From Mageeibacillus sp. UBA3708 (GTDB lineage Bacteria > Bacillota > Clostridia > Saccharofermentanales > Saccharofermentanaceae), in the NCBI GenBank assembly GCA_002371375.1, contig DFIB01000216.1:1-18707 (forward strand): a stretch of DNA of 18,707 bases, given 5' to 3'. The translations under genes were made by a program, and so were the position numbers. The notes under the pieces are model-generated. The model was not told the DNA's origin. It worked only from the letters and a program-made list of their open reading frames with translations, and did no database searches. Of this stretch, positions 3,903 to 14,363 are shown in pieces. Numbering within the stretch: position 1 is the stretch's first letter; the number at the start of each line of letters is the position of its first letter.

Positions 3903-5822
3903 TTAGTCGCGTGCGCTCTCGAGATCATCCATCCACATCTGATAACTCGTGTCCGAACTCATTCTCAAGTCACCTCGCGGCGACAGCGCTACCGTACCGA
4001 CTTTGGGACCGTCCGGCAGACATGATCTCTTGAACTGCTGGGTAAAGAATCTTCTTATAAAAGTCTTAAGCCATTTGTAGATCGTGTCATCATCATAGAT
4101 TCCGTCGAATGCAACGACAGCCAGACGGTAGATCTTGGACGGTGCAAAACCATAGCGGACAAAATAGTACAGGAAGAAATCATGAAGTTCATAAGGACCT
4201 ACTATATCCTCTGTCTTCTGTACGATATCACCCGATTCATCAGGCGGAAGCAGTTCAGGCGATACGGGGGTATTCAAGACATCTGTAAGGACTTCTGATA
4301 AAGAAGGCTGCTCATCTCTGACGCGCTTAGCCTCATACTGAACAAGATACCTCACAAGAGTCTTGGGAATTGATCCGTTGACGCCGTACATTGACATATG
4401 ATCGCCGTTATATGTCGCCCATCCGAGCGCCAGTTCCGACAGATCACCCGTACCGATTACGATACCGTTGCACTGGTTGGCAATATCCATAAGCAGCTGC
4501 GTACGCTCCCTTGCCTGGGCATTCTCATATGTAACATCGTGTTCATCGGGAGACTGGGAGATATCCTCAAAGTGCTGCAGAACACTCTTGGAAATGTTTA
4601 TTTCGCGGATAGATACCCCGTAGGAATCTGCCAGCTCGATTGAATTATTCTTCGTTCTTGAAGTCGTGCCGAAACAAGGCATCGTCACAGCATGGATATT
4701 TCCACGAGGGATTCCCAGATAATCGAAAGCATGAACCGTAACGATCAGTGCCAATGTCGAATCGAGGCCTCCTGACAGTCCGATTACCGCATCAGAGCAA
4801 TTAATTGCAGACAATCTCGTTGCAAGACCCATGGCCTGCATGCCAATTATATCCTCGCACCTGCTGTCAAGTTCTTTGCCTGATTTAGGCACGAATGGTC
4901 TTGTCGATATCTCTCTTGCAGGCACATCAATATCAGGTAATTCAAAACTGATATTCACCACATCAACACTTCTGTCAGTCTCGGCATAAAAAGTATTTAT
5001 TCTCTTTCGCTCATGCGAGATACGCTCAAGGTCGATATCGGCCCATATAAGTTCCTCATCGTATCCCCTGCGCTCTTCCAGCACTTTACCATTCTCACAT
5101 ATTATGTCATGACCTGCGAAAACAAGATCCGTCGATGATTCTCCGAATCCGCAGTCACTGTAAACATATGCGCAAAGCTGTTTGGCCGAGGCCACTGACA
5201 CAAGATCCCTGCGGTATCCTGCCTTGCCGATAACCTCATCTGAAGCAGACGGGTTAACAATGACAGTTGCTCCTGCCATACAGTAGCCGACAGAGGGATT
5301 GTCCGGCACCCACAATTCCTCACATATCTCAACAGCGATCGCCAGATCGGGATACTCCTCGTGTTCGAATATCAGCTTGCCGAACGGAATGCCTTCATAT
5401 GTACAGCCGAGTTCACCCTCTTCATATGCATTGAAATACCTTGTCTCGTAGAACTCGCCATACCCCGGGATTATACTTTTGGGGACTATACCTGCCACCT
5501 CGCCCCTGCAAAGAACGGCGGCACAATCGTATAGCTTGTGATTCATCTGTACGGGCAGTCCGACAATTATTGCCATCTCGAGGCAGGCTGTCCTGTCAGC
5601 TATATCCAGCAGAGCGTAGAATGCGGCATCGGTAAGAGTCTTATGAAGGAACATGTCCTGACATGTGTATCCCGTTATCGACAACTCCGGAAATACGAGC
5701 ACAGATATATCTTTCTGTGCGGCAATAGTTGACAGTTCAACTATTCGGTCTGCGTTATAACTGCAATCTGCTACTTTGACATTGGGCGTGGCACAGCCGA
5801 CTCTGACAAATCCGTCTCTCAT
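3903..5822 (-). CDS. nadE: Glutamine-dependent NAD+ synthetase
   Basis: Final step of NAD biosynthesis: ATP-dependent amidation of nicotinate adenine dinucleotide, with ammonia released from glutamine by the N-terminal domain. At 639 aa it has the long two-domain form. The nitrilase-type glutaminase domain (about 5-290) shows the Glu-Lys-Cys triad as E46 (FPELSITGY), K115 (VPKSIIPG) and C167 (EICEELW). The synthetase domain (about 320-639) has the ATP pyrophosphatase loop GLSGGLDST at 348-356 and the motifs GTGDLSELALGW and NGSIPKTLVRYL. The ATG is 2 nt after the stop of the acyl-CoA ligase gene, and AGAGG overlaps that gene's end, so translation is probably coupled. It is the last gene of the thioesterase-ligase-nadE operon. 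All key residues look intact. Confidence 0.96.
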   Translation of the reverse strand: MRDGFVRVGCATPNVKVADCSYNADRIVELSTIAAQKDISVLVFPELSITGYTCQDMFLHKTLTDAAFYALLDIADRTACLEMAIIVGLPVQMNHKLYDCAAVLCRGEVAGIVPKSIIPGYGEFYETRYFNAYEEGELGCTYEGIPFGKLIFEHEEYPDLAIAVEICEELWVPDNPSVGYCMAGATVIVNPSASDEVIGKAGYRRDLVSVASAKQLCAYVYSDCGFGESSTDLVFAGHDIICENGKVLEERRGYDEELIWADIDLERISHERKRINTFYAETDRSVDVVNISFELPDIDVPAREISTRPFVPKSGKELDSRCEDIIGMQAMGLATRLSAINCSDAVIGLSGGLDSTLALIVTVHAFDYLGIPRGNIHAVTMPCFGTTSRTKNNSIELADSYGVSIREINISKSVLQHFEDISQSPDEHDVTYENAQARERTQLLMDIANQCNGIVIGTGDLSELALGWATYNGDHMSMYGVNGSIPKTLVRYLVQYEAKRVRDEQPSLSEVLTDVLNTPVSPELLPPDESGDIVQKTEDIVGPYELHDFFLYYFVRYGFAPSKIYRLAVVAFDGIYDDDTIYKWLKTFIRRFFTQQFKRSCLPDGPKVGTVALSPRGDLRMSSDTSYQMWMDDLESARD

Positions 5823-5824
5823 AA

Positions 5825-7525
5825 TCAGTACCTCTTAATCTTTTTGGAAGTGTTCTTCTCAAATTCTGTCTTGCGGAGAACAACTCTCTTGATCCTCTTG
5901 TAATTCGGAAGCTTCTCATTGGCTTCCTCGGAGACCTGCTTGAGCAGAGCTTCGATCTTATCGTCTGAAGCGCCCTCACCAAGCTTCGCCTCGACCTGCT
6001 CCATATCAGGGAAAATGGTTGCAACAATAATAGTATCGTTCTTCACCTCATCTTCCACACCTGATACGACACTCTCTGCAACGTACGGAGACAGTGACAG
6101 CAGGTATTCAATCTCCTCAGGGAAAACATTCTTGCCGTTCTTGGCAATGATTACGTTCTTCTTGCGGCCTGTGATGATACAGAAGCCATCCTTATCAATA
6201 TATCCGAGATCACCTGTATGATAGTAACCGTCTTTATCGAGAGCCTTGGCAGTAGCCTCGGGATCGTTATAGTAACCGAGGAAAATATTATCTCCTTTTG
6301 CGATGAATTCACCGATTCCGTCTTCATCCGGATCAAGCACTTTGACGTCACATCCCGGAAGCGGAAGCCCTGCCGCATGATTCTTGAAGTCGACGTCCCT
6401 GTTGAGCGCGAGAATCGGCGCACACTCCGTAAGACCGTATCCCTGAATACAGATAAAACCCATGTCCTGGAAGAATCTCAGCATATCGGGGTTGACCGGG
6501 GCTCCGCCCAGAATGATAAGCCTCATTCTTCCGCCGAAGACTTCGTGGATGTCTTTGAACAGCTTTTTCCTCACGTCAATATGGAGCTTCATAAGGAACC
6601 TCGACAATTTGATTCCCGTACGGAGTTTCTTAGCTTGCTTGGGGTCCTCGTTGACCTTCTTCATGATCGCTTTGTAGAACATCTCAAGCATTACCGGAAC
6701 CATCAGCACACAGGTGGGCTTGGCTTCCTTGATATTGGATGTGATATATCTGAGGCCTTCACAAATAGCTATTGTGGATCCTCTGTACACCTGTCCGAGG
6801 AATCCGCACGTACACTCATATGTATGATGCAAAGGCAGAACAGAGAAGAAAACGTCATCCCTGTAGATATAAACCATCGAATACATTGCCATCAGGTTCT
6901 TGCATATATTACGCTGGCAGAGCATGACCGCCTTGGATTTGGCCGTTGTCCCGGATGTGAACAGGAGAATGGTCATCTCATTCTCATCAATCGGAGTCTC
7001 AAGATAATCGCTGTTACCGGCTGCAAGAAGGTCTTCACCCTCTTTGAGGAGAGCGGAGAAAGACATAAATCTGGAATCCTTTGTATCATCCATGCTCACA
7101 TAATACTTGATAGTGGGAATCTTGCCGTACACCTGATCAACTACAGACAGCTTGGATCCTGAGAATATCAACACATCAACTTCGGCTCTTACAAGACAGT
7201 TCTCTATCTCTTCCGGATGGAGTTCCTTATCTATAGGAACGACACAACCAACACCGTTAGTCGTTGCAAGATAAGAGACAAACCACTCATATCTCGTCTC
7301 TGACAGTATAGCTACGCGTGCACCCTTTCTGACCCTTTTGAACAGTGCTGTTCCGAGAGAATCAATATCGTGATCGTATTTCTCGGTTGATACGGGGACA
7401 TATTCCCCACCCTTGACGGGCTTATGCAGGAAGACGGGATTACCCGGGAACTCACGCACACGTGTCTTGATAATATCTCTTAAATTCGTGATCTGTGTGA
7501 CTTCATAAAGCGGAATATTCTTCAT
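5825..7525 (-). CDS. AMP-forming long-chain acyl-CoA (or acyl-ACP) synthetase
   Basis: A 566-residue ANL-superfamily enzyme that activates a carboxylic acid, probably a fatty acid, as acyl-AMP and then transfers it to a thiol. Visible motifs: ATP loop LLFTSGTTAKSKAV (187-200), GGAPVNPDM (340-348), GYGLTECAP (362-370), YHTGDLG (435-441), GRKKNVI (453-459), and a C-terminal NTSKKIKR that carries the likely catalytic lysine (K562). No transmembrane segment is obvious. The start ATG is one base after the thioesterase stop (TAA-G-ATG), with GGAGG in the end of that gene. The gene next to it releases fatty acids from ACP, so a free fatty acid substrate is likely. Whether the acceptor is CoA or ACP cannot be told from the sequence. 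Confidence 0.92.
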   Translation of the reverse strand: MKNIPLYEVTQITNLRDIIKTRVREFPGNPVFLHKPVKGGEYVPVSTEKYDHDIDSLGTALFKRVRKGARVAILSETRYEWFVSYLATTNGVGCVVPIDKELHPEEIENCLVRAEVDVLIFSGSKLSVVDQVYGKIPTIKYYVSMDDTKDSRFMSFSALLKEGEDLLAAGNSDYLETPIDENEMTILLFTSGTTAKSKAVMLCQRNICKNLMAMYSMVYIYRDDVFFSVLPLHHTYECTCGFLGQVYRGSTIAICEGLRYITSNIKEAKPTCVLMVPVMLEMFYKAIMKKVNEDPKQAKKLRTGIKLSRFLMKLHIDVRKKLFKDIHEVFGGRMRLIILGGAPVNPDMLRFFQDMGFICIQGYGLTECAPILALNRDVDFKNHAAGLPLPGCDVKVLDPDEDGIGEFIAKGDNIFLGYYNDPEATAKALDKDGYYHTGDLGYIDKDGFCIITGRKKNVIIAKNGKNVFPEEIEYLLSLSPYVAESVVSGVEDEVKNDTIIVATIFPDMEQVEAKLGEGASDDKIEALLKQVSEEANEKLPNYKRIKRVVLRKTEFEKNTSKKIKRY

Positions 7526-7526
7526 C

Positions 7527-8261
7527 TTATACCTCCGGCTTTTGCATAATGATCACGGCATGAACCGAGTCATCCGTCCTGTCCTTTATAATAACACAAT
7601 GTGTGTCTCCGTCACTCGAATATTCAAGAAGAACAGTCTCACCCGGCTTGATCTCCTTCCTGTAGCAGACTTCCACATCATCGAACATCAGCTTGTCCAC
7701 ACCTTCCGGAAGCACCTCTTCCGCCAGATCAAGATAAGATGCATTATGAACGTGTCCGTTAAGGTCTATCATCGACTTGATCACCTTGAATTCCGCGCTG
7801 CTGATCAGCGGAAGATCGGGAGCGTTGCGTGTGAACTTGAATTCCGGGAAATTTACCCTGTCACTCTCAAGGCCGTAACAATCAATCTCTTCAGGAGACA
7901 GTTTGATCGGCCTGCCTGTCTCCGGTGATACTGCCACCCAGTTGGATGTGGCTATTGCTATGATATTACCTTCCATATCACGGATCTCATAATCTCTCGC
8001 AGCTTGAAGTCCCTTATATGAACGTCCCCATGTCACGGCCTTGATCGATGCACATGCCGCGGGTCTTGAATACACTTCCATCTTCCAGTTCAGCACAACC
8101 CAGGTCAGATGACTGATATCCTTCTCACCTGTACTCTGCCCGACCATCAATCCGTGGACATTTGCCGTATTTGACAGGGCCTCGATGAGAGCTTTATTTG
8201 TGATCTTATTGCCTTCACCCACATCCTGAAGCCCGACGAAAAAACACTGTTCTGCCTGCAT
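7527..8261 (-). CDS. Acyl-ACP thioesterase (double hot-dog fold)
   Basis: Hydrolyses acyl-ACP to free fatty acid. The product is 244 aa from the chosen start, a usual length for bacterial members (PF01643 family). The second hot-dog domain has the catalytic signature IDLNGHVHNASYL (165-177), matching the family D-x-N-x-H-x-x-N-x-x-Y pattern. The N-terminal half has VVLNWKMEVYSRP, typical of the first hot-dog. A longer frame can start at ATG 8279, but its codons 2-3 form AGGAGG, which sits 9 nt before the internal ATG at 8261. That is an ideal ribosome site, so 8261 is preferred. First gene of the operon with the acyl-CoA ligase and nadE. Confidence 0.9.
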   Translation of the reverse strand: MQAEQCFFVGLQDVGEGNKITNKALIEALSNTANVHGLMVGQSTGEKDISHLTWVVLNWKMEVYSRPAACASIKAVTWGRSYKGLQAARDYEIRDMEGNIIAIATSNWVAVSPETGRPIKLSPEEIDCYGLESDRVNFPEFKFTRNAPDLPLISSAEFKVIKSMIDLNGHVHNASYLDLAEEVLPEGVDKLMFDDVEVCYRKEIKPGETVLLEYSSDGDTHCVIIKDRTDDSVHAVIIMQKPEV

Positions 8262-8285
8262 TAATGCACGCCTCCTCATCCATAT

Positions 8286-8313
8286 TTGCTCATCGTATAG
8301 TATATGTTATAAT
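8286..8313 (+). promoter_or_regulatory. Extended -10 promoter giving a near-leaderless transcript
   Basis: A perfect TATAAT (8308-8313) is preceded by TGT (8305-8307), making an extended -10. A weak TTGCTC (8286-8291) sits 16 bp upstream. The ATG of the next gene begins 6 nt after the -10, so transcription should start at or within 1-2 nt of the start codon. Confidence 0.6.
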
Positions 8314-8327
8314 CACGTCATGGAAAA
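8299..8327 (-). promoter_or_regulatory. Candidate promoter of the thioesterase-ligase-nadE operon
   Basis: Minus strand TTTTCC (8322-8327), 17-bp spacer, TATACT (8299-8304, 5/6 match). The -35 is weak and lies over the start codon of the divergent gene at 8320. This promoter therefore overlaps the opposing one completely. Confidence 0.45.
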
Positions 8328-8769
8328 GAGAGATTTGATCGACAGAATATTTATAGCTTTTTGCGCGTTGACCCTGGTGTCGGTGTTTCTGCCGTGTGAT
8401 GAACTGGATAAGATCAGAAGCGGGATTTCAATACCTGTTTACTCTTCAATACTTGACGGCAAAGCCGGCTTTGTACACATTCTTCTGCCGGTCGCTGCGG
8501 CCTTCATGATCATCATCGGCAAGCGTGTGATCGCCTCATTACTCGGTTTTGTCACTGTGGGATTTAACGGCTTTACCGTATATTATTTCTGGGATCAGAG
8601 TGAATATATTGTCAATGCTTTCTCCTCCGGGAGCAAGTTGGGCGAGCTCTACCAGATGATCGGTTATGACGGCTGCACACATATCCTGCCTCTTGGATTC
8701 TATCTGGCAGTAGTCGCAATGTCATTATTGCTTCTGATATCTATTGTGAACCTGATAATCAAGGAGTGA
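8320..8769 (+). CDS. Unrecognised four-helix membrane protein
   Basis: 149 aa. I do not recognise the family. Hydrophobic segments lie at about 10-26, 49-66, 70-90 and 122-146, with short charged ends (MEKRDLIDR at the start, IIKE at the end). C46-like catalytic motifs or known domains are absent. No Shine-Dalgarno sequence precedes the ATG; instead a strong -10 is 6 nt upstream, so the mRNA is probably leaderless. No alternative in-frame start with a ribosome site is visible. It converges on the gene at 8773-9330, 3 nt apart, which is also a small four-helix protein. Function unknown. Confidence 0.75.
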   Translation: MEKRDLIDRIFIAFCALTLVSVFLPCDELDKIRSGISIPVYSSILDGKAGFVHILLPVAAAFMIIIGKRVIASLLGFVTVGFNGFTVYYFWDQSEYIVNAFSSGSKLGELYQMIGYDGCTHILPLGFYLAVVAMSLLLLISIVNLIIKE

Positions 8770-8779
8770 TTATCACTCC
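8763..8779. terminator. Perfect palindrome holding both convergent stop codons
   Basis: GGAGTGA-TTA-TCACTCC is a 7-bp perfect stem with a 3-nt loop. The TGA stop of the plus gene (8767-8769) and the TGA stop of the minus gene (8775-8773) lie in opposite arms. It could act as a bidirectional terminator or mRNA 3'-end stabiliser. No clear T-run follows on either strand, so strong intrinsic termination is uncertain. Confidence 0.45.
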
Positions 8780-9330
8780 GTTCCGCCCTTCTTACTGAAC
8801 ATCTGTATCATCAACTCGATAAACTGGATCGGGCCCAGATCTCCGAGTCTTCTGTGTCCGCCTTCACTGTTCAGATACATATCAACCCTGCTGGCAAGGA
8901 TATTAACGAGCTTGAAGAGCAAGACACAAAGGACTCCCAGGAATACGAGAACATTCGGCGGATATTTCACACCGGGAACAAAAAAAGCCAATAGCAGATG
9001 TCCCGCCCAAATCCCGACGAAAGTGATACCAAGCCACCTCAGTTCATAAGAACCTGCCTGTGTGACAAGATCGTCGATGTTGTGCACCCTGAAGTAGAAA
9101 ATGAATACTGCCAGACATGCCAGTGCATTTGTCAAGCCTCTGTATATACCGTAATCAACAAGGCGTAACATAAATTTATCTGATATAAATCCCACATGGG
9201 GCAACGTATCGCTCATGAGGCAGAACATTCCAAAACAGAACATTGCAAGGAAAAGAACAGTCAGCACGATGAATAAAACCATCATGCTCCTGTTAAATCT
9301 TGTCCTTGCTGTACATTCCATATTACGCAT
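8773..9330 (-). CDS. Unrecognised four-helix membrane protein with cytosolic tail
   Basis: 185 aa, family not recognised. Hydrophobic segments lie at about 14-37, 62-80, 95-112 and 120-143, with a hydrophilic tail (MYLNSEGGHRRLGDLG... ending FSKKGGTE). The start at 9330 has GAGGTG 5 nt upstream and a good promoter at 9358-9387, so the gene is transcribed independently of the sensor operon that precedes it on the same strand. A second ATG three codons later lacks a ribosome site. The tail segment FIELMIQMF is amphipathic and might lie on the membrane. Function unknown. Confidence 0.75.
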   Translation of the reverse strand: MRNMECTARTRFNRSMMVLFIVLTVLFLAMFCFGMFCLMSDTLPHVGFISDKFMLRLVDYGIYRGLTNALACLAVFIFYFRVHNIDDLVTQAGSYELRWLGITFVGIWAGHLLLAFFVPGVKYPPNVLVFLGVLCVLLFKLVNILASRVDMYLNSEGGHRRLGDLGPIQFIELMIQMFSKKGGTE

Positions 9331-9357
9331 TTTTGCACCTCGAACAATACTCTCGAA

Positions 9358-9387
9358 ATAATACAGAGTTCTTTTTTACTGTATCAA
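9358..9387 (-). promoter_or_regulatory. Promoter of the 185-aa membrane protein gene
   Basis: Minus strand TTGATA (9382-9387), 18-bp spacer, TATTAT (9358-9363). Both hexamers match the sigma-A consensus at 5 of 6 positions. The start codon is about 28 nt downstream. Confidence 0.65.
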
Positions 9388-9392
9388 GTATA

Positions 9393-9536
9393 TCATTTTC
9401 TTGCAGAGATTGCCCTGTCTTTGTCGCTTATTTCCACTCTGTTCCAGATAATAGAATCCACGTAATCCTGAGCTGAGTAACTTCCGAGTTCTTCGGCCTG
9501 ACCATCAAAGTAATAGCATTGATTACAATTACAGCC
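9393..9536 (-). pseudogene. Orphan 47-codon frame without a start, likely gene remnant
   Basis: Between sensor A and the next promoter, the minus strand has a stop-to-stop frame of 47 codons. It begins GCNCNQCYYFDG, continues AQDYVDSIIWNRVEISDKD and ends SARK followed by TGA. Codon use (AGA/AGG, GAT/GAC, GAA) looks like that of neighbouring genes and the composition is protein-like. A TAA lies directly before the first codon and there is no ATG, GTG or TTG in frame. It is best read as the decayed 3' end of a small protein with a CxCxxC cluster. A peptide made by frameshifting is possible but unsupported. Confidence 0.4.
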
Positions 9537-9563
9537 TTAATTATTGGTTCTTCACGTGCGCAA

Positions 9564-10439
9564 TTATTTAATATTGATCAGGATCTCGTCTATCATCTCT
9601 GATGCTATCGACTTATCTTCATCCGTATTCTGCGCCAGATGATGCTCTATCTGTTCGATATAATTCACAACATCATGCCTCATAAATCTGGCTCTCTCGA
9701 TCTCACGCTGAATGCGTTCATAATAATCGCTGTCATATTTTATATAAGCATCCATGATCGCCTTCTCTTTCTCTGCAAGACGCACCTTCTCGTAGCGCCG
9801 GTAGAAGGACATAACAGAGAATATGCCGAGCAATGTCGTACCGAGGATGACTATGCTCCAGAAGACAGTATATCCGAACGATGTGTACAGATTACGGGAG
9901 TATATCGGAAGTATATATACAAACATTACCGTAGGGATTATGAACAGTATGACAATTGGAAATAAGACTCCTCTGAGCGCTTTACGCTTGTGTAAGACTA
10001 TTTCGAGCATATAAAGGCCTATTATCAACATCTCCGACCAGTGCGTCATCAGTATGGTATCTGACCACTCCTCCGCCTTGGCATAGATATAATAACGGCC
10101 TACAAAATTGCACATATATAAGACGAGCGTAACAATAACCAACGCTGCCATACCGGTCGCGATGCTGTAGAATATTATCAGGAGCTTCCTCCTTAATCTG
10201 TCTTTGTTGATCAGGAAGACGATAACGATTACCGTAACGGTCGAGAATGTGATTGTATCGAACCACTTTGCCGCGAGATTGTTGTAAACTGCCAGATCCA
10301 TCAGAAGCGTTCCGATAAGTAGACAGATATATTTGTTACGAATCCTTCTTCTGTCTGTCAGGGAGACGACCATATAAGCCATAAAGAACTGCTCTATGGT
10401 TGCTATCAGCATCTGAACTACAAGAGCACGACCTTCCAT
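9564..10439 (-). CDS. Sensor A: AgrC-like 7-TM sensor with histidine box but no ATPase domain
   Basis: 291 aa. Seven hydrophobic segments (about 6-27, 37-54, 60-78, 86-110, 129-148, 157-180, 187-212) are followed by a coiled coil (RRYEKVRLAEKEKAIMD) and a histidine box, FMRHDVVNYIEQIE, with H255, D256 and N259 in the HPK10/AgrC arrangement. The protein then ends at residue 291, within what should be the second dimerisation helix. There is no N box, G box or any ATP-binding region, and the 233 bp after the stop encode none. Its ATG is 3 nt after the stop of sensor B, so it is the last gene of the operon. On its own it cannot autophosphorylate. I infer that sensor C phosphorylates it in trans and that it then passes phosphate to the LytTR regulator. 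The ligand is unknown. Confidence 0.88.
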   Translation of the reverse strand: MEGRALVVQMLIATIEQFFMAYMVVSLTDRRRIRNKYICLLIGTLLMDLAVYNNLAAKWFDTITFSTVTVIVIVFLINKDRLRRKLLIIFYSIATGMAALVIVTLVLYMCNFVGRYYIYAKAEEWSDTILMTHWSEMLIIGLYMLEIVLHKRKALRGVLFPIVILFIIPTVMFVYILPIYSRNLYTSFGYTVFWSIVILGTTLLGIFSVMSFYRRYEKVRLAEKEKAIMDAYIKYDSDYYERIQREIERARFMRHDVVNYIEQIEHHLAQNTDEDKSIASEMIDEILINIK

Positions 10440-10442
10440 ATA

Positions 10443-11294
10443 TCACCCGGCGAGCCTCGCCTCAAGCTCTTCCATCAGTTTCCCGGCAGTCTCCATCGAT
10501 CCGCTGTCCCCGAGTTCTGCAAGAGCCCTTATCTGCTCAGTATAATTTATAACGTCATGACGTATGAATCTCACCTTATCGATCTCTCCCTGGACCAGTT
10601 CGAAATAATTCCTGTCGAATCCCTCGACCTGTTCCATCAACTCCTTCTCTTTGGCGAGCATATACACACGCTTGCTTGCAGTAATGAAGCGGATGAAGAG
10701 TAACACTAATACCTGATTGATCAGAATAGCCAGTATTCCGGTAGTAACAGATAAACCGAGGCTGTGATTGCCTTCATCTACGATCAGCACGATCAGATAG
10801 AGCAGGATAAGAAGCGGAATCAGCGCTAAGAGTATTGTTTGCATTGCAACCATCTTCTGCCTTCTGCGCCTATATGCCATTACCGATATGAGGCAAATGT
10901 CACAAAACAGCGTTGTCGAGAAAGTATAGAAGAGCTCCCTTGCGGATCCTTTATCGCTGTCAAGCGGCAAGATACCCAGCAAGTATGCTATCAGGAGCGA
11001 TAACAGGCCAACAACGACTGTCATTCCCGCAAAGGCAAGGAATATAGTTATTCTTTGGCGCAACCTGTCTTTGTTCAAGGCAAAAGATATGACCGCCAGG
11101 GACCCAAAGTAAAGCAGCGCCGTATGGACATAATTGAAATAAGCATAATTAAGACAACACATGACCATAAGAAGGCATCCTAATGGGTAATTGATATAAT
11201 TCGGGAAGCGTCTTGTCTCACTGATCTGGACAAGCGAATAAATAAACACAATACCGTAAAAGCATCCCTCTGTTATTATCCACGCCGGATTCAT
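10443..11294 (-). CDS. Sensor B: AgrC-like 7-TM sensor with histidine box but no ATPase domain
   Basis: 283 aa from ATG 11294. A TTG at 11315 could give seven more residues, but AAGGAG lies 7 nt before the internal ATG, and that ATG overlaps the sensor C stop as ATGA. The N-terminal region has about seven membrane segments and a linker, LAKEKELMEQVEGFDRNYFE. The histidine box FIRHDVINYTEQI carries H246. The protein stops about 37 residues later with no ATPase domain. It aligns without gaps with sensor A through linker and histidine box, and shares the NKDRLR loop after the third helix. The sensor region is otherwise diverged, suggesting a different ligand. Its truncation point matches sensor A, so the short form looks selected rather than accidental. 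Confidence 0.88.
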   Translation of the reverse strand: MNPAWIITEGCFYGIVFIYSLVQISETRRFPNYINYPLGCLLMVMCCLNYAYFNYVHTALLYFGSLAVISFALNKDRLRQRITIFLAFAGMTVVVGLLSLLIAYLLGILPLDSDKGSARELFYTFSTTLFCDICLISVMAYRRRRQKMVAMQTILLALIPLLILLYLIVLIVDEGNHSLGLSVTTGILAILINQVLVLLFIRFITASKRVYMLAKEKELMEQVEGFDRNYFELVQGEIDKVRFIRHDVINYTEQIRALAELGDSGSMETAGKLMEELEARLAG

Positions 11295-12640
11295 ACGCGT
11301 TCTCCTTCGCTGCAATTGAGCATCATTGTAAAGACCGATACATGATCCCTGATATCGACAGTCAATTCACCGTCGTACCTGCGGGCTATGTTCCGAAGTA
11401 TCTTAAGTCCGTAGCCGTGAACGCCGATCGGATTATCCTTTGTTGTACTAAGTTTGGTAATATCATCTACGACTTCAGAAGATACAGTCGGATTCTCAGT
11501 TCTTATGACGAGAAGTTCTCCCTTCTTCGCAATATTCAGATTGACGTATGGGTCTGATCCGGATTCCTTATAAGTTGCCGCGGATTCTATTGCATTGTCA
11601 GCAAGATTCGATACGACAGAAGACAGATCCAGCTTGGATATATTCACATCTCCGGGGACAACAGCTTTGACACTCATCGGAATATCAAGCGACTCAGCCT
11701 TGCGCATCTTAAGTGTAAGGACCATATCAACTGTTGCTTCCTCACAAAAGTGCATGCCGGTCATCTTATCAACATCGGTGCCGATCTTATTCATCAGTTC
11801 TTCATTGCTTCCTGTCTTACCTGACTCAATATTTGCCTTGATCTCACCGATACGCTTAAGAATGTCCTTTTTGATCTTATCGGTCTCTGACAGTTCCTGC
11901 TCCATTGTCTCAAAATATCTCTTATCAAGATGGGCAAGGTTAGCCTTAAGCTCTTCTTCCTTCTCCCTCTCATAGAGTTTATCGTTGCTTGCAATAAACC
12001 TGATGAAGAGAATATTGATCGCTGTGTTAAACACAAGTGCTCCGATACCTGCCATCATCGCATAGGTCATATCCTGTGCCAGATCATTACGGAATATCAG
12101 AGTAAGATAGATCAATTGCATTAACGGCAGAAGCGCGAGCAGCAATATCGGTATGACAACATTTTTTACCTGTTTACGGTTATGCCAGAGGATAATGATG
12201 GTGTACATTGTAATGTCGCATACTTCCATAAACATCCTGTTGTAGTTAAGGAAATAAGGACCTCGATCGGAATTGGTGAAAGCTGTTATTCCAAGAAGGA
12301 GATAGAGGTATATCTCATACAGTATCTCAAGCAGAACTGACGGCACGACCAGCATAACAAAAGCGATCAATTTCCTCTTGATACTGTCACGGCTTAATAC
12401 CAGTATCGTGACCAGAATGCAGGACATGGATACTATATAAGGGCTCATATCCCAGACATCAATTACTTCGACTATAACACAATTATAGAAGATCCCTAAC
12501 CCGATCATAGCCATACCGAAGAGGTAATTGATTACCTTGTTATCTGTCCTTCTCTTCGTGGTATATGCCATGAGCAGATAGACCATGAAGAAGATCTCAA
12601 CCAAAGCAGCTATTACTTGAAGAACTGCAGAACCTGTCAT
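11291..12640 (-). CDS. Sensor C: AgrC-like kinase with GHKL ATPase domain but Lys replacing the acceptor His
   Basis: 449 aa: seven membrane segments (within 1-217), a coiled-coil linker (YEREKEEELKANLAHLDK), a dimerisation helix, and a C-terminal GHKL ATPase domain (about 300-445). The N box SNLADNAIESA (344-354) keeps both Asn and the Asp. TENP (381-384) and the G box GVHGYGLKIL (406-415) are also present. In the gap-free alignment with sensors A and B, 'RHDVxNY' becomes KKDILKR: the acceptor His is K258 (AAG, 11867-11869) and the box Asn is also Lys. No other His falls nearby in the helix. The start overlaps the regulator's stop as ATGA, with GGAGGT 8 nt upstream. It should bind ATP but cannot phosphorylate itself on the usual residue. 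I infer it phosphorylates A and B in heterodimers. Confidence 0.9.
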   Translation of the reverse strand: MTGSAVLQVIAALVEIFFMVYLLMAYTTKRRTDNKVINYLFGMAMIGLGIFYNCVIVEVIDVWDMSPYIVSMSCILVTILVLSRDSIKRKLIAFVMLVVPSVLLEILYEIYLYLLLGITAFTNSDRGPYFLNYNRMFMEVCDITMYTIIILWHNRKQVKNVVIPILLLALLPLMQLIYLTLIFRNDLAQDMTYAMMAGIGALVFNTAINILFIRFIASNDKLYEREKEEELKANLAHLDKRYFETMEQELSETDKIKKDILKRIGEIKANIESGKTGSNEELMNKIGTDVDKMTGMHFCEEATVDMVLTLKMRKAESLDIPMSVKAVVPGDVNISKLDLSSVVSNLADNAIESAATYKESGSDPYVNLNIAKKGELLVIRTENPTVSSEVVDDITKLSTTKDNPIGVHGYGLKILRNIARRYDGELTVDIRDHVSVFTMMLNCSEGERV

Positions 12641-13347
12641 GCGAGCATACCTCCGAGATATCTTGTCAGGGCAATCCTGACCTCCTTCGCCCTCGCCTGG
12701 CTTACCGGGATCGCTGCCCCTGTATCGAGAACAGCAGTATCACTCCTGAGTCTCTCGACATGTTTCAAATTAACTATAAAACTCTGGTGCGTCTTCACAA
12801 AACTGTCATCCAGCTTTGCCTCAACGTCCTTTATCCTGGAATAAAAAGAATACACATTGTTGACCGTGTGTAACTTCATAAGACGCTTATCACTCTCATA
12901 ATAAAGGATATCCGAATATGGAACACTTACTATCTGAGCGCCGGAAGAGAATGAGAACTTTGACCTCTCCAGCTTCTCTATAGACGAGATCGCCTTGTCA
13001 ACAGCAGCCCTGAGCTTGTCTGACTTCACCGGCTTTTGCAGGTAGTATACCGGCTCCACCTCAAAAATATCCTGCGCGTATTCATGGAATGCACTTGCAA
13101 AGATAATCTGTATTTCCGGATTCGAACACTTAAGCTTAGCAGCCAACTCTATCCCGCTCGAATTGGTTCCATCCGAATCTATCAGATCGATATCCATAAT
13201 AAGAACATCGTAAAAGCTGTCTTCGGCGATATCCGCTATCTTATAGGCAAATGCGTGATCAAACACCCCCGGGTAGAATTCCTCTATCATGGCGTGCAAC
13301 TCGTTTACTGTATTTTTGTTATCATCACATATCAATAATTTATGCAT
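12637..13347 (-). CDS. LytTR-family response regulator (AgrA-like)
   Basis: 236 aa, first gene of the sensor operon. The receiver domain (1-122) has the acidic pair D8-D9, phosphoacceptor D52 (LIMDIDL), S85 (IIFASAF) and K105 (LQKPVK), all as expected for an active receiver. The LytTR DNA-binding domain (about 135-232) shows SDILYYESDKRLMKLHT, DDSFVKTHQSFIVNLKHVE and PVSQARAKEVR. The gene has no Shine-Dalgarno site; an extended -10 sits 8 nt before ATG 13347, so the mRNA is probably leaderless or nearly so. A later start would remove D8-D9. It should receive phosphate from the histidines of sensors A and B. Target sites were not found with confidence. Confidence 0.95.
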   Translation of the reverse strand: MHKLLICDDNKNTVNELHAMIEEFYPGVFDHAFAYKIADIAEDSFYDVLIMDIDLIDSDGTNSSGIELAAKLKCSNPEIQIIFASAFHEYAQDIFEVEPVYYLQKPVKSDKLRAAVDKAISSIEKLERSKFSFSSGAQIVSVPYSDILYYESDKRLMKLHTVNNVYSFYSRIKDVEAKLDDSFVKTHQSFIVNLKHVERLRSDTAVLDTGAAIPVSQARAKEVRIALTRYLGGMLA

Positions 13348-13550: not shown

Positions 13551-14141
13551 ATGAACGAAGAGAATGTAAAGCTTGCCAAGATCAAGAAGAGCTGCAAGGC
13601 AGGCAGGATAGCATCTAAGGTGCTGGGCATTATCGGGATAGTCGCTTTCGTGCTGGTAACGGTAGGTGCAATCGTAATCCTCGGCATGGGCAAGAATTTT
13701 GACAACGCACTGGCAGAGGCGGAAGGAACACTTAACATCAGCTTCAAGAGCGGCATCGCGGAAGCGAGAATAATGGGTATCAGTGTTGGTGACATATCGA
13801 ATATCGAGACTGATGTACCTGCAATAAGAGAGATACTCGATGATCACCCCATGAGCTTTGTCTTTGGCTCCTATCTCTTGGGCATAGCGGTGCTTGTGCT
13901 GATAACCACAGTTTTGTTATTTATCATCAGCAGCACTTTCGCGACGATAGAGAAGCAGGATACGCCGTTCACCGATAAAGTTATCCGTAAGGTCACCGCA
14001 ACACTTATCATCCTCTCGGTTATCATGCTTCTGACGATTGGCGGTGGAGCAGCAATTATAGGATTACTGACAACATGGGTTATCTATACGATTTTGGATT
14101 ACGGGAAGACCCTTCAGATACAGTCTGATGAGACTTTATAA
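13551..14141 (+). CDS. DUF2975-family membrane protein
   Basis: 196 aa. A charged N-terminus (NVKLAKIKKSCKAGR) is followed by a first membrane helix (24-46), an outside loop rich in acidic residues, and further helices at about 104-127, 148-165 and 167-184. The segment ATIEKQDTPFTDKVIRKV and the C-terminal YGKTLQIQSDETL are the characteristic DUF2975 signatures. In this family the gene normally sits directly before a small Cro-like regulator, as it does here (12 nt gap). The pair resembles B. subtilis YoaS-YozG. The molecular function of the family is not established; a membrane signal controlling the paired regulator is a reasonable inference. Confidence 0.85.
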   Translation: MNEENVKLAKIKKSCKAGRIASKVLGIIGIVAFVLVTVGAIVILGMGKNFDNALAEAEGTLNISFKSGIAEARIMGISVGDISNIETDVPAIREILDDHPMSFVFGSYLLGIAVLVLITTVLLFIISSTFATIEKQDTPFTDKVIRKVTATLIILSVIMLLTIGGGAAIIGLLTTWVIYTILDYGKTLQIQSDETL

Positions 14142-14153
14142 GGAGGGCAGGAC

Positions 14154-14363
14154 ATGGGACAGATTATACTGAGACTTGACAGGGTCATGGCGGACCGCAA
14201 GATGAGCCTGAATGAACTGGCAGAGAAGGTTGGTGTATCGAATGTCAACCTGTCTAAGATGAAGAACGGGAAGATATCAGCGATAAGGTTCTCAACACTG
14301 GAAGCGATATGCGATGCACTCGACTGTCAGCCCGGGGATATACTGGAATACAGTAAGGAATAA
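14154..14363 (+). CDS. Small XRE/Cro-type transcriptional regulator (YozG-like)
   Basis: 69 aa, essentially one helix-turn-helix domain. The HTH spans about 18-41 (SLNELAEKVGVSNVNLSKMK), followed by NGKISAIRFSTLEAICDAL and CQPGDILEY, typical of the HTH_26 type. GGAGGG lies 6 nt before the ATG. It is co-transcribed with the DUF2975 protein and probably controls their shared operon and perhaps others. A strong hairpin follows 15 nt after the stop. Confidence 0.92.
   Translation: MGQIILRLDRVMADRKMSLNELAEKVGVSNVNLSKMKNGKISAIRFSTLEAICDALDCQPGDILEYSKE

What the first reader, a model, noticed from the sequence alone, without database searches (positions are those of the whole stretch)
9564..12640. 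Split histidine kinase: ATPase without acceptor histidine, two acceptors without ATPase
Seen directly: sensors A and B carry intact boxes (RHDVVNY, H255; RHDVINY, H246) and end 36-37 residues later with no N or G box. Sensor C has N box SNLADNAIESA and G box GVHGYGLKIL, but its box reads KKDILKR (K258, AAG). The alignment across linker and box is gap-free, and the regulator keeps D52. Known: HPK10/GHKL kinases need His on the dimerisation helix and ATP from the catalytic domain, often acting between subunits. Inference: C phosphorylates A and B in heterodimers, which then feed the LytTR regulator. I know of no described AgrC-type system built this way.
Basis: partly seen in the sequence, partly recalled or inferred. 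Interest (0 to 1): 0.93.

Follow-up and report, generated by a model that had tools for sequence, protein, structure and literature searches.

The report
AgrC-type sensor kinase split between proteins
Some rumen bacteria and relatives carry operons in which one membrane protein keeps the ATP-binding half of a sensor kinase but has lost the histidine, while its neighbours keep the histidine but have no ATP-binding half, so together they likely work as one shared, mix-and-match sensor.

Summary
In the window, C has an intact GHKL ATPase domain but Lys at the phospho-acceptor site; A and B have RHDxxN boxes and stop 36-37 residues later. It is no artefact: the same genome has a second RR-C-B-A operon with Gln in C, and a congener has RR-C-B with Ala. 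In 13 C proteins (the window's included) the site is K, Q, A, E or S, never His, while six checked ATP-box residues are invariant; 11 of 11 A/B proteins keep His and lack an ATPase domain. Of 50 GHKL sensors read in the host's family, 49 have His; the exception is truncated. Nine of 13 C proteins keep only 2-3 predicted membrane helices.

A class-wide search led to a second lineage in another family (G441, G586, G595, with a likely intermediate in G585): His-only sensors, a LytTR regulator, and an ATPase subunit with Asp at the site. Trees reject the donors of both lineages as one clade, and likewise the acceptors.

Best reading: a split HPK10/AgrC-type kinase in which C likely phosphorylates A and B in mixed dimers. 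Phosphotransfer and dimers are inferred. Split kinases are known among CheAs; the results listed by my ten searches showed no AgrC/LytTR version.

The parts
12637..13347 (-). LytTR response regulator (236 aa), first gene of the operon; phospho-acceptor D52 codon at 13192-13194
   Evidence: Pfam Response_reg 5.1e-12 and LytTR 2e-21; D present in the regulators of all three lineage-1 operons
11291..12640 (-). C: ATPase subunit (449 aa), 6 hydrophobic helices by hydropathy, dimerisation hairpin without His, intact GHKL ATPase domain
   Evidence: HATPase_c_5 1.1e-15; hydropathy; AF2 mean pLDDT 74, hairpin helices 191-273 and 279-295, ATPase 304-442; Foldseek best hits AgrC module 6e52/6e95 (rmsd about 21 over the whole module), AgrC ATPase domain 4bxi rmsd 3.2
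11867..11869 (-). codon AAG, Lys258 of C, at the phospho-acceptor His site
   Evidence: gap-free alignment; the column is K,Q,Q,A,K,E,Q,Q,Q,E,E,E,S in 13 C proteins
11585..11611 (-). N box of C (SNLADNAIE, residues 344-352)
   Evidence: N345, D348 and N349 in 13 of 13 C proteins
11396..11422 (-). G box of C (VHGYGLKIL, residues 407-415)
   Evidence: H408, G409 and G411 in 13 of 13 C proteins
10443..11294 (-). B: sensor/acceptor (283 aa), 6 hydrophobic helices by hydropathy, hairpin with RHDVINY box, no ATPase domain
   Evidence: 8 of 8 B proteins are 281-283 aa with His and no precomputed Pfam domain; hydropathy; AF2 helices 244-261 and 264-282, block pLDDT 60-80 in a poor overall model
10557..10559 (-). 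codon CAT, phospho-acceptor His246 of B
   Evidence: sequence read; invariant in A3 and in 8 of 8 B proteins
9564..10439 (-). A: second sensor/acceptor (291 aa), 6 hydrophobic helices by hydropathy, RHDVVNY box, no ATPase domain
   Evidence: 3 of 3 A proteins 291-293 aa with His and no precomputed Pfam domain; no ATPase hit; hydropathy
9675..9677 (-). codon CAT, phospho-acceptor His255 of A
   Evidence: sequence read; invariant in A5
12637..12640 (-). ATGA overlap of regulator stop and C start
   Evidence: same 4-base overlap in G000:C215 and G031
11291..11294 (-). ATGA overlap of C stop and B start
   Evidence: same 4-base overlap in G000:C215 and G031

Best explanation
The operon encodes an AgrC-type sensor kinase whose two catalytic halves sit on different proteins: C has the ATP-binding domain without the histidine, B and A have the histidine without an ATP-binding domain, and C likely phosphorylates them in mixed dimers so that they would pass the phosphate to the LytTR regulator. 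Shown by sequence: which half each protein keeps, the recurrence of the layout, the loss of His in C with its D(+1) and N(+4) partners lost or variable, and their retention in A and B. Inferred: that C pairs with A or B through the dimerisation hairpin all three keep; that C's ATPase reaches the partner's His in trans, as in the AgrC dimer; that A/B pairs without C act as regulator phosphatases through the retained HDxxN motif; and that signals arrive through the membrane domains, above all those of A and B, since 9 of 13 C proteins are predicted to lack most of theirs. The ligand is unknown. The confidence below is for the split core (C's ATPase serves A and B); mixed dimers are the likelier of two geometries.
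For: (1) Three operons of one lineage: window RR-C-B-A, G000:C215 RR-C-B-A, G031:C8 RR-C-B, with RR-C and C-B joined by ATGA overlaps in all three. (2) Site residue in C: 0 of 13 His, five different residues, at least 6 changes on the tree; N345, D348, N349, H408, G409 and G411 are 13 of 13. (3) A and B: 11 of 11 His, 0 of 11 with an ATPase domain. (4) 9 of 13 C proteins (292-320 aa) have 2-3 hydrophobic helices before hairpin and ATPase; 8 of 8 B have 5-6. (5) His is the norm: 49 of 50 GHKL sensors read in the host's family, the exception truncated, and 26 of 28 in the family of lineage 2, the two exceptions being G595's donor and a 198-aa ATPase-only protein. (6) A second lineage repeats the plan: G441 and G586 (one acceptor, donor of 284 aa with Asp), G595 (three acceptors, donor of 443 aa with Asp). 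One clade is rejected for the donors (p-AU 1e-5 on the ATPase domain, 5e-4 on membrane+hairpin columns) and for the acceptors (3e-4). (7) G585 looks intermediate: two His-only sensors next to a regulator, and a kinase that still has His but reads HRMED instead of HDMKN. (8) AgrC H239Q disrupts AgrC autophosphorylation (passage of PMC12930874); AgrC tails cross-phosphorylate (passage of PMC3673130). The C215 copy of C carries Gln naturally.
Against: No biochemistry. The lineage is rare among held genomes: close C and B in 2 species of the 188 searched in the order and no further species in a class sample of 391. Genomic context is known for 3 of the 13 C proteins; the other ten are metagenome predictions whose DNA I did not see, so a short C could in part reflect a mis-called start. 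In a first tree with distant kinases C was not one clade; without six long-branch rows it was (99/96); on the ATPase domain its support is weak (71/36). A common origin of A, B and C is unresolved (48/45); A groups about as readily with one-chain kinases.
Confidence: 0.8

Rival explanations
1. C is a pseudokinase of the DivL kind: its ATP domain is kept only for binding or allostery, and another full kinase of the cell phosphorylates A and B or the regulator directly.
For: DivL is a described pseudo-histidine kinase that regulates CckA (listing and starts of abstracts). G000 has full His-bearing relatives elsewhere, such as G000:C182 with its own regulator.
Against: A and B have no ATPase of their own, and C is the ATPase encoded near them in the three lineage-1 operons and in G441, G586 and G595. 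The six N- and G-box residues checked are 13 of 13 conserved. In G031, C keeps hairpin and ATPase while most of the sensor is gone.
Confidence: 0.1
2. Split kinase without mixed dimers: a C homodimer phosphorylates A/A and B/B homodimers from outside, as CheA4 does CheA3. This shares the split core; its 0.25 lies inside the 0.8 given to that core.
For: Precedent of CheA3/CheA4, where the ATPase domain of one transiently binds the His domain of the other (passages of PMC3591291).
Against: C keeps the dimerisation hairpin and the last membrane helices even where the rest of the sensor is gone. A, B and C share hairpin positions D239 and E249 (13/13, 8/8, 3/3); D239 is in 36% and Glu at 249 in a minority of 14 one-chain kinases. 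Suggestive only.
Confidence: 0.25
3. A and B are truncated, decaying kinases and C is a kinase that lost its His by drift; the operon is on its way out.
For: Decaying GHKL sensors do occur: a truncated kinase with Asn at the site in the control (L093); tandem sensors without ATPase beside a regulator in two frames, with a weak ATPase remnant, in G408. The regulator of G441 also reads in two frames, though not in G586.
Against: Frames are open in the three lineage-1 loci read as DNA. Box residues are conserved in the matching partners. The 11 A/B proteins all end shortly after the hairpin (281-293 aa). Two lineages converge on the plan.
Confidence: 0.04

Closest known systems
CheA3/CheA4 split chemotaxis kinase of Rhodobacter sphaeroides
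   Same: ATPase and phospho-acceptor on separate proteins; neither autophosphorylates alone; the acceptor is also a phosphatase of the regulator (passages of PMC3591291).
   Different: CheA proteins with P1-P5 domains in a cytoplasmic chemotaxis cluster; here membrane HPK10/AgrC-type sensors with a LytTR regulator, acceptors that carry their own membrane sensor part, and one ATPase beside 1-3 acceptors.
AgrC/AgrA and other HPK10-LytTR quorum-sensing systems
   Same: Polytopic membrane sensor, RHDxxN box (motif form recalled), HATPase_c_5 domain, LytTR regulator; C's model matches the AgrC kinase module best.
   Different: AgrC has both halves in one chain; here no single protein has both. No convincing AgrB/AgrD was seen beside the operon: of 8 window proteins scanned, 13551-14141 has only a chance-level AgrB hit (E 0.26); genes beside the C215 copy were not scanned.
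Hik36-Hik43 of Synechocystis
   Same: Called a split histidine kinase: two genes, one regulator (abstract and passages of PMC7656254).
   Different: A CheA homologue of the pilus cluster split into two genes; not a membrane HPK10 kinase.
DivL pseudo-histidine kinase; CCNA_03265 of Caulobacter
   Same: Kinase-like proteins without the acceptor His (DivL: listing and abstract starts, Tyr at the site recalled; CCNA_03265: passages of PMC11481889, where a heterodimer with another hybrid kinase is one option discussed).
   Different: Their proposed partners are complete kinases or phosphotransfer proteins; here the partners have no ATPase domain.

Membership tests
split histidine kinase | ATPase and phospho-acceptor His on separate polypeptides, neither having both | tested here: met
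   C 13 of 13 with ATPase and without His; A/B 11 of 11 with His and without ATPase
split histidine kinase | both parts encoded together | tested here: met
   3 of 3 lineage-1 loci with context; G441, G586 and G595 in lineage 2, G595 with an opposite-strand gene between
split histidine kinase | the ATPase part phosphorylates the His part | not testable with these tools
   needs a phosphotransfer assay
split histidine kinase | acceptor carries a phosphatase motif (HE/DxxN/T, the motif quoted in PMC3591291) | tested here: met
   HDxxN in 11 of 11 A/B proteins, not kept in C; activity untested
CheA-type split kinase | CheA domain set | tested here: not met
   no CheA domain in A, B or C in the Pfam scan
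HPK10/AgrC kinase (A or B alone) | GHKL ATPase domain in the same chain | tested here: not met
HPK10/AgrC kinase (C alone) | RHDxxN phospho-acceptor box | tested here: not met
   K258, and 0 of 13 His in C proteins
HPK10/AgrC kinase (operon as a whole) | polytopic sensor, HATPase_c_5 and LytTR regulator | tested here: met
DivL-like pseudokinase | acts on a complete partner kinase | tested here: inconclusive
   the operon partners A and B have no ATPase domain, but an unlinked complete partner is not excluded

The most novel reading that the evidence does not exclude
AgrC-type receptors have split at least twice into a shared, His-less ATPase subunit and one to three sensor/acceptor subunits, making obligate heteromeric receptors in which a single ATPase serves several senses and kinase (mixed dimer) is separated from phosphatase (acceptor pair) - a natural switch-like sensor whose order of assembly (acceptors first, then His loss, then loss of the donor's sensor) can still be seen.
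Probability: 0.6. Interest if true: 0.86.

Novelty: new variant of a known kind. Interest (0 to 1): 0.77.

Why it matters
Sensor kinases are usually single chains that pair with themselves. If the reading is right, here the two catalytic halves are on different membrane proteins, so the receptor would be obligately mixed. One ATPase could then serve several sensors, and phosphorylation could be separated from dephosphorylation, the arrangement that modelling says allows ultrasensitive or bistable output (passages of PMC3591291). The two origins and the G585 intermediate make the evolution of such receptors testable. It also warns annotation against writing off His-less GHKL sensors as dead kinases, or ATPase-less sensors as fragments.

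Tried and rejected
Assembly or frameshift error: rejected by the second copy, a second species and two near-identical MAG contigs and by the absence of ATPase remnants. Another conserved His in C as acceptor: H237 is in 8 of 13 and a His five residues after the site in 4 of 13, so neither is conserved. G408 tandem sensors without ATPase: not counted as split, because the regulator reads in two frames and a weak ATPase remnant (E 0.019) follows. Short frames in genus g106: the three I read (L182, L216, L217) have His and ATPase in one chain; other short frames listed, and G377, were not read. Viral contigs: no relative. Genome contigs gave two loci that are near-identical copies of one sequence. 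B's structure model was too poor for a fold search.

Rows left out: the first tree warned of long branches, so 6 distant one-chain kinases were dropped for the second. The two-lineage tree used 10 of 13 C, 5 of 8 B, 3 of 3 A, 7 of 14 one-chain kinases, 2 of 3 G595 acceptors and 8 of the 28 sensors of the other family; its lineage-2 donor group included G585's His-bearing kinase. In one search the lineage-2 donor group held G441 and G586 only; G595's donor sat among the others. The 50 control loci were the 30 kept and 20 that I picked near the weak end of its (cut) list.

The ten literature searches covered split, pseudo-, heterodimeric and His-less histidine kinases, AgrC dimers and HPK10. No AgrC/LytTR split system was among the papers listed; some searches listed only the top 10-15 of 36-395 papers. 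'heterodimeric histidine kinase' returned 0. Most subscription papers are missing from that library.
Full report
WHAT IS THERE. On the minus strand the window holds a four-gene operon: LytTR regulator (12637-13347), C (11291-12640), B (10443-11294 from its ATG) and A (9564-10439). Pfam finds HATPase_c_5 in C (E 1.1e-15), Response_reg and LytTR in the regulator, and no ATPase domain in A or B at E <= 1. No ATPase remnant follows A or B. The AlphaFold2 model of C (mean pLDDT 74) has hairpin helices ending at 273 and spanning 279-295 and an ATPase domain from 304 to 442. Its best structural matches are the AgrC kinase module (6e52, 6e95; the whole-module superposition is loose, rmsd about 21) and, for the ATPase domain alone, AgrC 4bxi (rmsd 3.2); a profile of C also finds 4bxi and 6e52 by sequence (E 1.2e-4 and 0.0058). 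B's model is poor overall (54.8), but its last two helices (244-261, 264-282) read as a hairpin. A and B thus stop about where the ATPase domain would begin.

IT RECURS IN THE HOST'S GENUS. The same genome has a second operon on contig C215 (L009): regulator 63% identical, C 60% with Gln at the His site, B and A with His and no ATPase domain. Of 115 genomes of the family, one other has a C above 50% identity, G031. Public contigs with the same sequence are titled Clostridiales RGIG7976 and Lachnospiraceae RGIG8400, water buffalo rumen, and are near-identical. There the order is regulator-C-B, C has Ala at the site and two hydrophobic helices instead of six, and no A gene lies next to B. Of 188 genomes of the order, only these two hold a close B; a class sample of 391 added no species with C. 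The regulator-C and C-B junctions are ATGA overlaps in all three loci.

THE PATTERN HOLDS IN THE PROTEIN DATABASE. The search with C gave 14 proteins among the 7994 candidates scored. P0015 (E 2e-11, normal box) is a one-chain kinase and is set apart, which leaves 13 C proteins, including the window's own, the C215 type and the G031 type. The site reads K,Q,Q,A,K,E,Q,Q,Q,E,E,E,S: no His. The D(+1) and N(+4) of the box are lost or variable. At least 6 changes occurred at the site on the tree, while N345, D348, N349, H408, G409 and G411 are 13 of 13. B gave 8 proteins and A gave 3, the window's own included; all 11 keep the His and none has a Pfam ATPase domain. P0004 (a C) and P0025 (an A) report the same longest-contig length, 22599, so they may be linked (inference). 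Nine of 13 C proteins (292-320 aa) have only 2-3 hydrophobic helices; the 8 B proteins have 5-6. For one of the nine (G031) I saw the DNA.

CONTROL. Among HATPase_c_5 sensors of the host's family, 50 loci were read (the 30 kept by the search and 20 weaker ones I picked). 49 have His at the site; one has Asn, and its frame ends inside the G box. The 14 one-chain relatives used for comparison all have His, but that count is circular, because they were anchored on an HD/HE motif, and the profile used for the 50 was built from them. In the family of lineage 2, 26 of 28 loci read have His; the other two are G595's donor and a 198-aa ATPase-only protein.

A SECOND ORIGIN. A class-wide search (391 genomes) with the membrane-plus-hairpin part of A, B and one-chain relatives led to G441 in another family. 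It has a 288-aa His sensor without ATPase domain, a LytTR regulator (in two frames in this assembly) and a 284-aa protein with two membrane helices (by eye), an intact ATPase domain and Asp at the His site. G586 has the same three genes with an unbroken regulator. G595 has three tandem His-only sensors, an opposite-strand aldolase-like gene (named by eye), then a 443-aa donor with Asp and a LytTR-type regulator (these were aligned, not scanned with Pfam). G585 has two His-only sensors and a regulator near a contig end. A kinase at another contig end, whose first residues repeat the last ones of the former contig, still has His but with HRMED in place of HDMKN. Within G586, acceptor and donor align over the last membrane helices and hairpin (E 3e-14), better than the acceptor does with the window's B (E 9e-6). 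Holding the donors of both lineages as one clade is rejected on the ATPase domain (p-AU 1e-5; G441 and G586 for lineage 2) and on the membrane-plus-hairpin columns (5e-4; four lineage-2 rows, G585 among them). Holding the acceptors as one clade is rejected too (3e-4). The groups were named after the first observations, so these p values are a guide. Whether lineage 2 split once or more often is open (p-AU 0.21 for one clade).

HOW IT LIKELY WORKS. C has the ATP-site residues but no acceptor; A and B have the acceptor, the DxxN motif and a membrane sensor part but no ATP site. AgrC tails cross-phosphorylate (passage of PMC3673130), G-box glycines of AgrC are described as critical for ATP binding (passage of PMC6755735), and H239Q disrupts AgrC autophosphorylation (passage of PMC12930874). 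The natural reading is that C pairs with B or A and phosphorylates them in trans. Where C lost its sensor, the signal would enter through B. Acceptor pairs without C would be phosphatases. All of this paragraph beyond the sequence facts and the three passages is inference. The ligand and the target genes are unknown; A looks like an optional second input.

WHAT IS KNOWN. Split kinases are characterised for CheA3/CheA4; the same paper counts 1556 of 42417 HisKA proteins without HATPase domain in SMART, 711 of them with the phosphatase motif, and suggests split kinases among them (passages of PMC3591291). Hik36-Hik43 is a split CheA homologue (abstract and passages of PMC7656254). A His-less hybrid kinase of Caulobacter has been suggested to form a heterodimer with another kinase, as one option (passages of PMC11481889). 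PMC8895600 on the evolution of two-component quorum sensing has no occurrence of 'HPK10', 'split', 'lacking' or 'truncated' in its text. The papers listed by my ten searches include no AgrC/LytTR example (some lists were cut). I therefore call this a new variant of a known kind, with two origins.

Noticed in passing
L009 6513-7202 (G000:C215): A second LytTR-type gene downstream of the paralogous operon has lost the phospho-acceptor Asp of its receiver (Gly at that place); 37% identical to the window's regulator.
   Followed up: partly
L183 (G595:C181) 3903-9950: Three tandem His-only sensors (two nearly identical), an aldolase-like gene on the other strand, then a His-less full-length sensor and a LytTR-type regulator.
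   Followed up: yes
L215 5056-8100 and L180 3451-4398 (G585): Two His-only sensors beside a regulator, and a kinase on another contig end that keeps His but has lost the D and N of the box; looks like an intermediate of the split.
   Followed up: partly
L181 3679-4275 (G595:C102): A 198-aa protein with little beyond a GHKL ATPase domain and Arg at the His column; no partner was identified in the stretch read.
   Followed up: partly
L146 5531-8086 (G408:C81): Two tandem sensors with SPOB_a box and no ATPase domain, next to a regulator that reads in two frames; a weak ATPase remnant follows; probably decaying.
   Followed up: partly
L093 672-1742 (G042:C3): Truncated GHKL kinase with Asn in place of the acceptor His; its frame ends inside the G box.
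   Followed up: partly
L012 1003-3704 (G000:C172): A separate agr-like set in the same genome: regulator, full-length kinase and an AgrB-like membrane protein (names by eye, not from a call).
   Followed up: no
window 13551-14363: Divergent pair beside the operon: a membrane protein (by eye; eleven weak Pfam hits only, among them AgrB at E 0.26) and a small Cro/C1-type regulator (HTH_26, E 2.2e-25).
   Followed up: no
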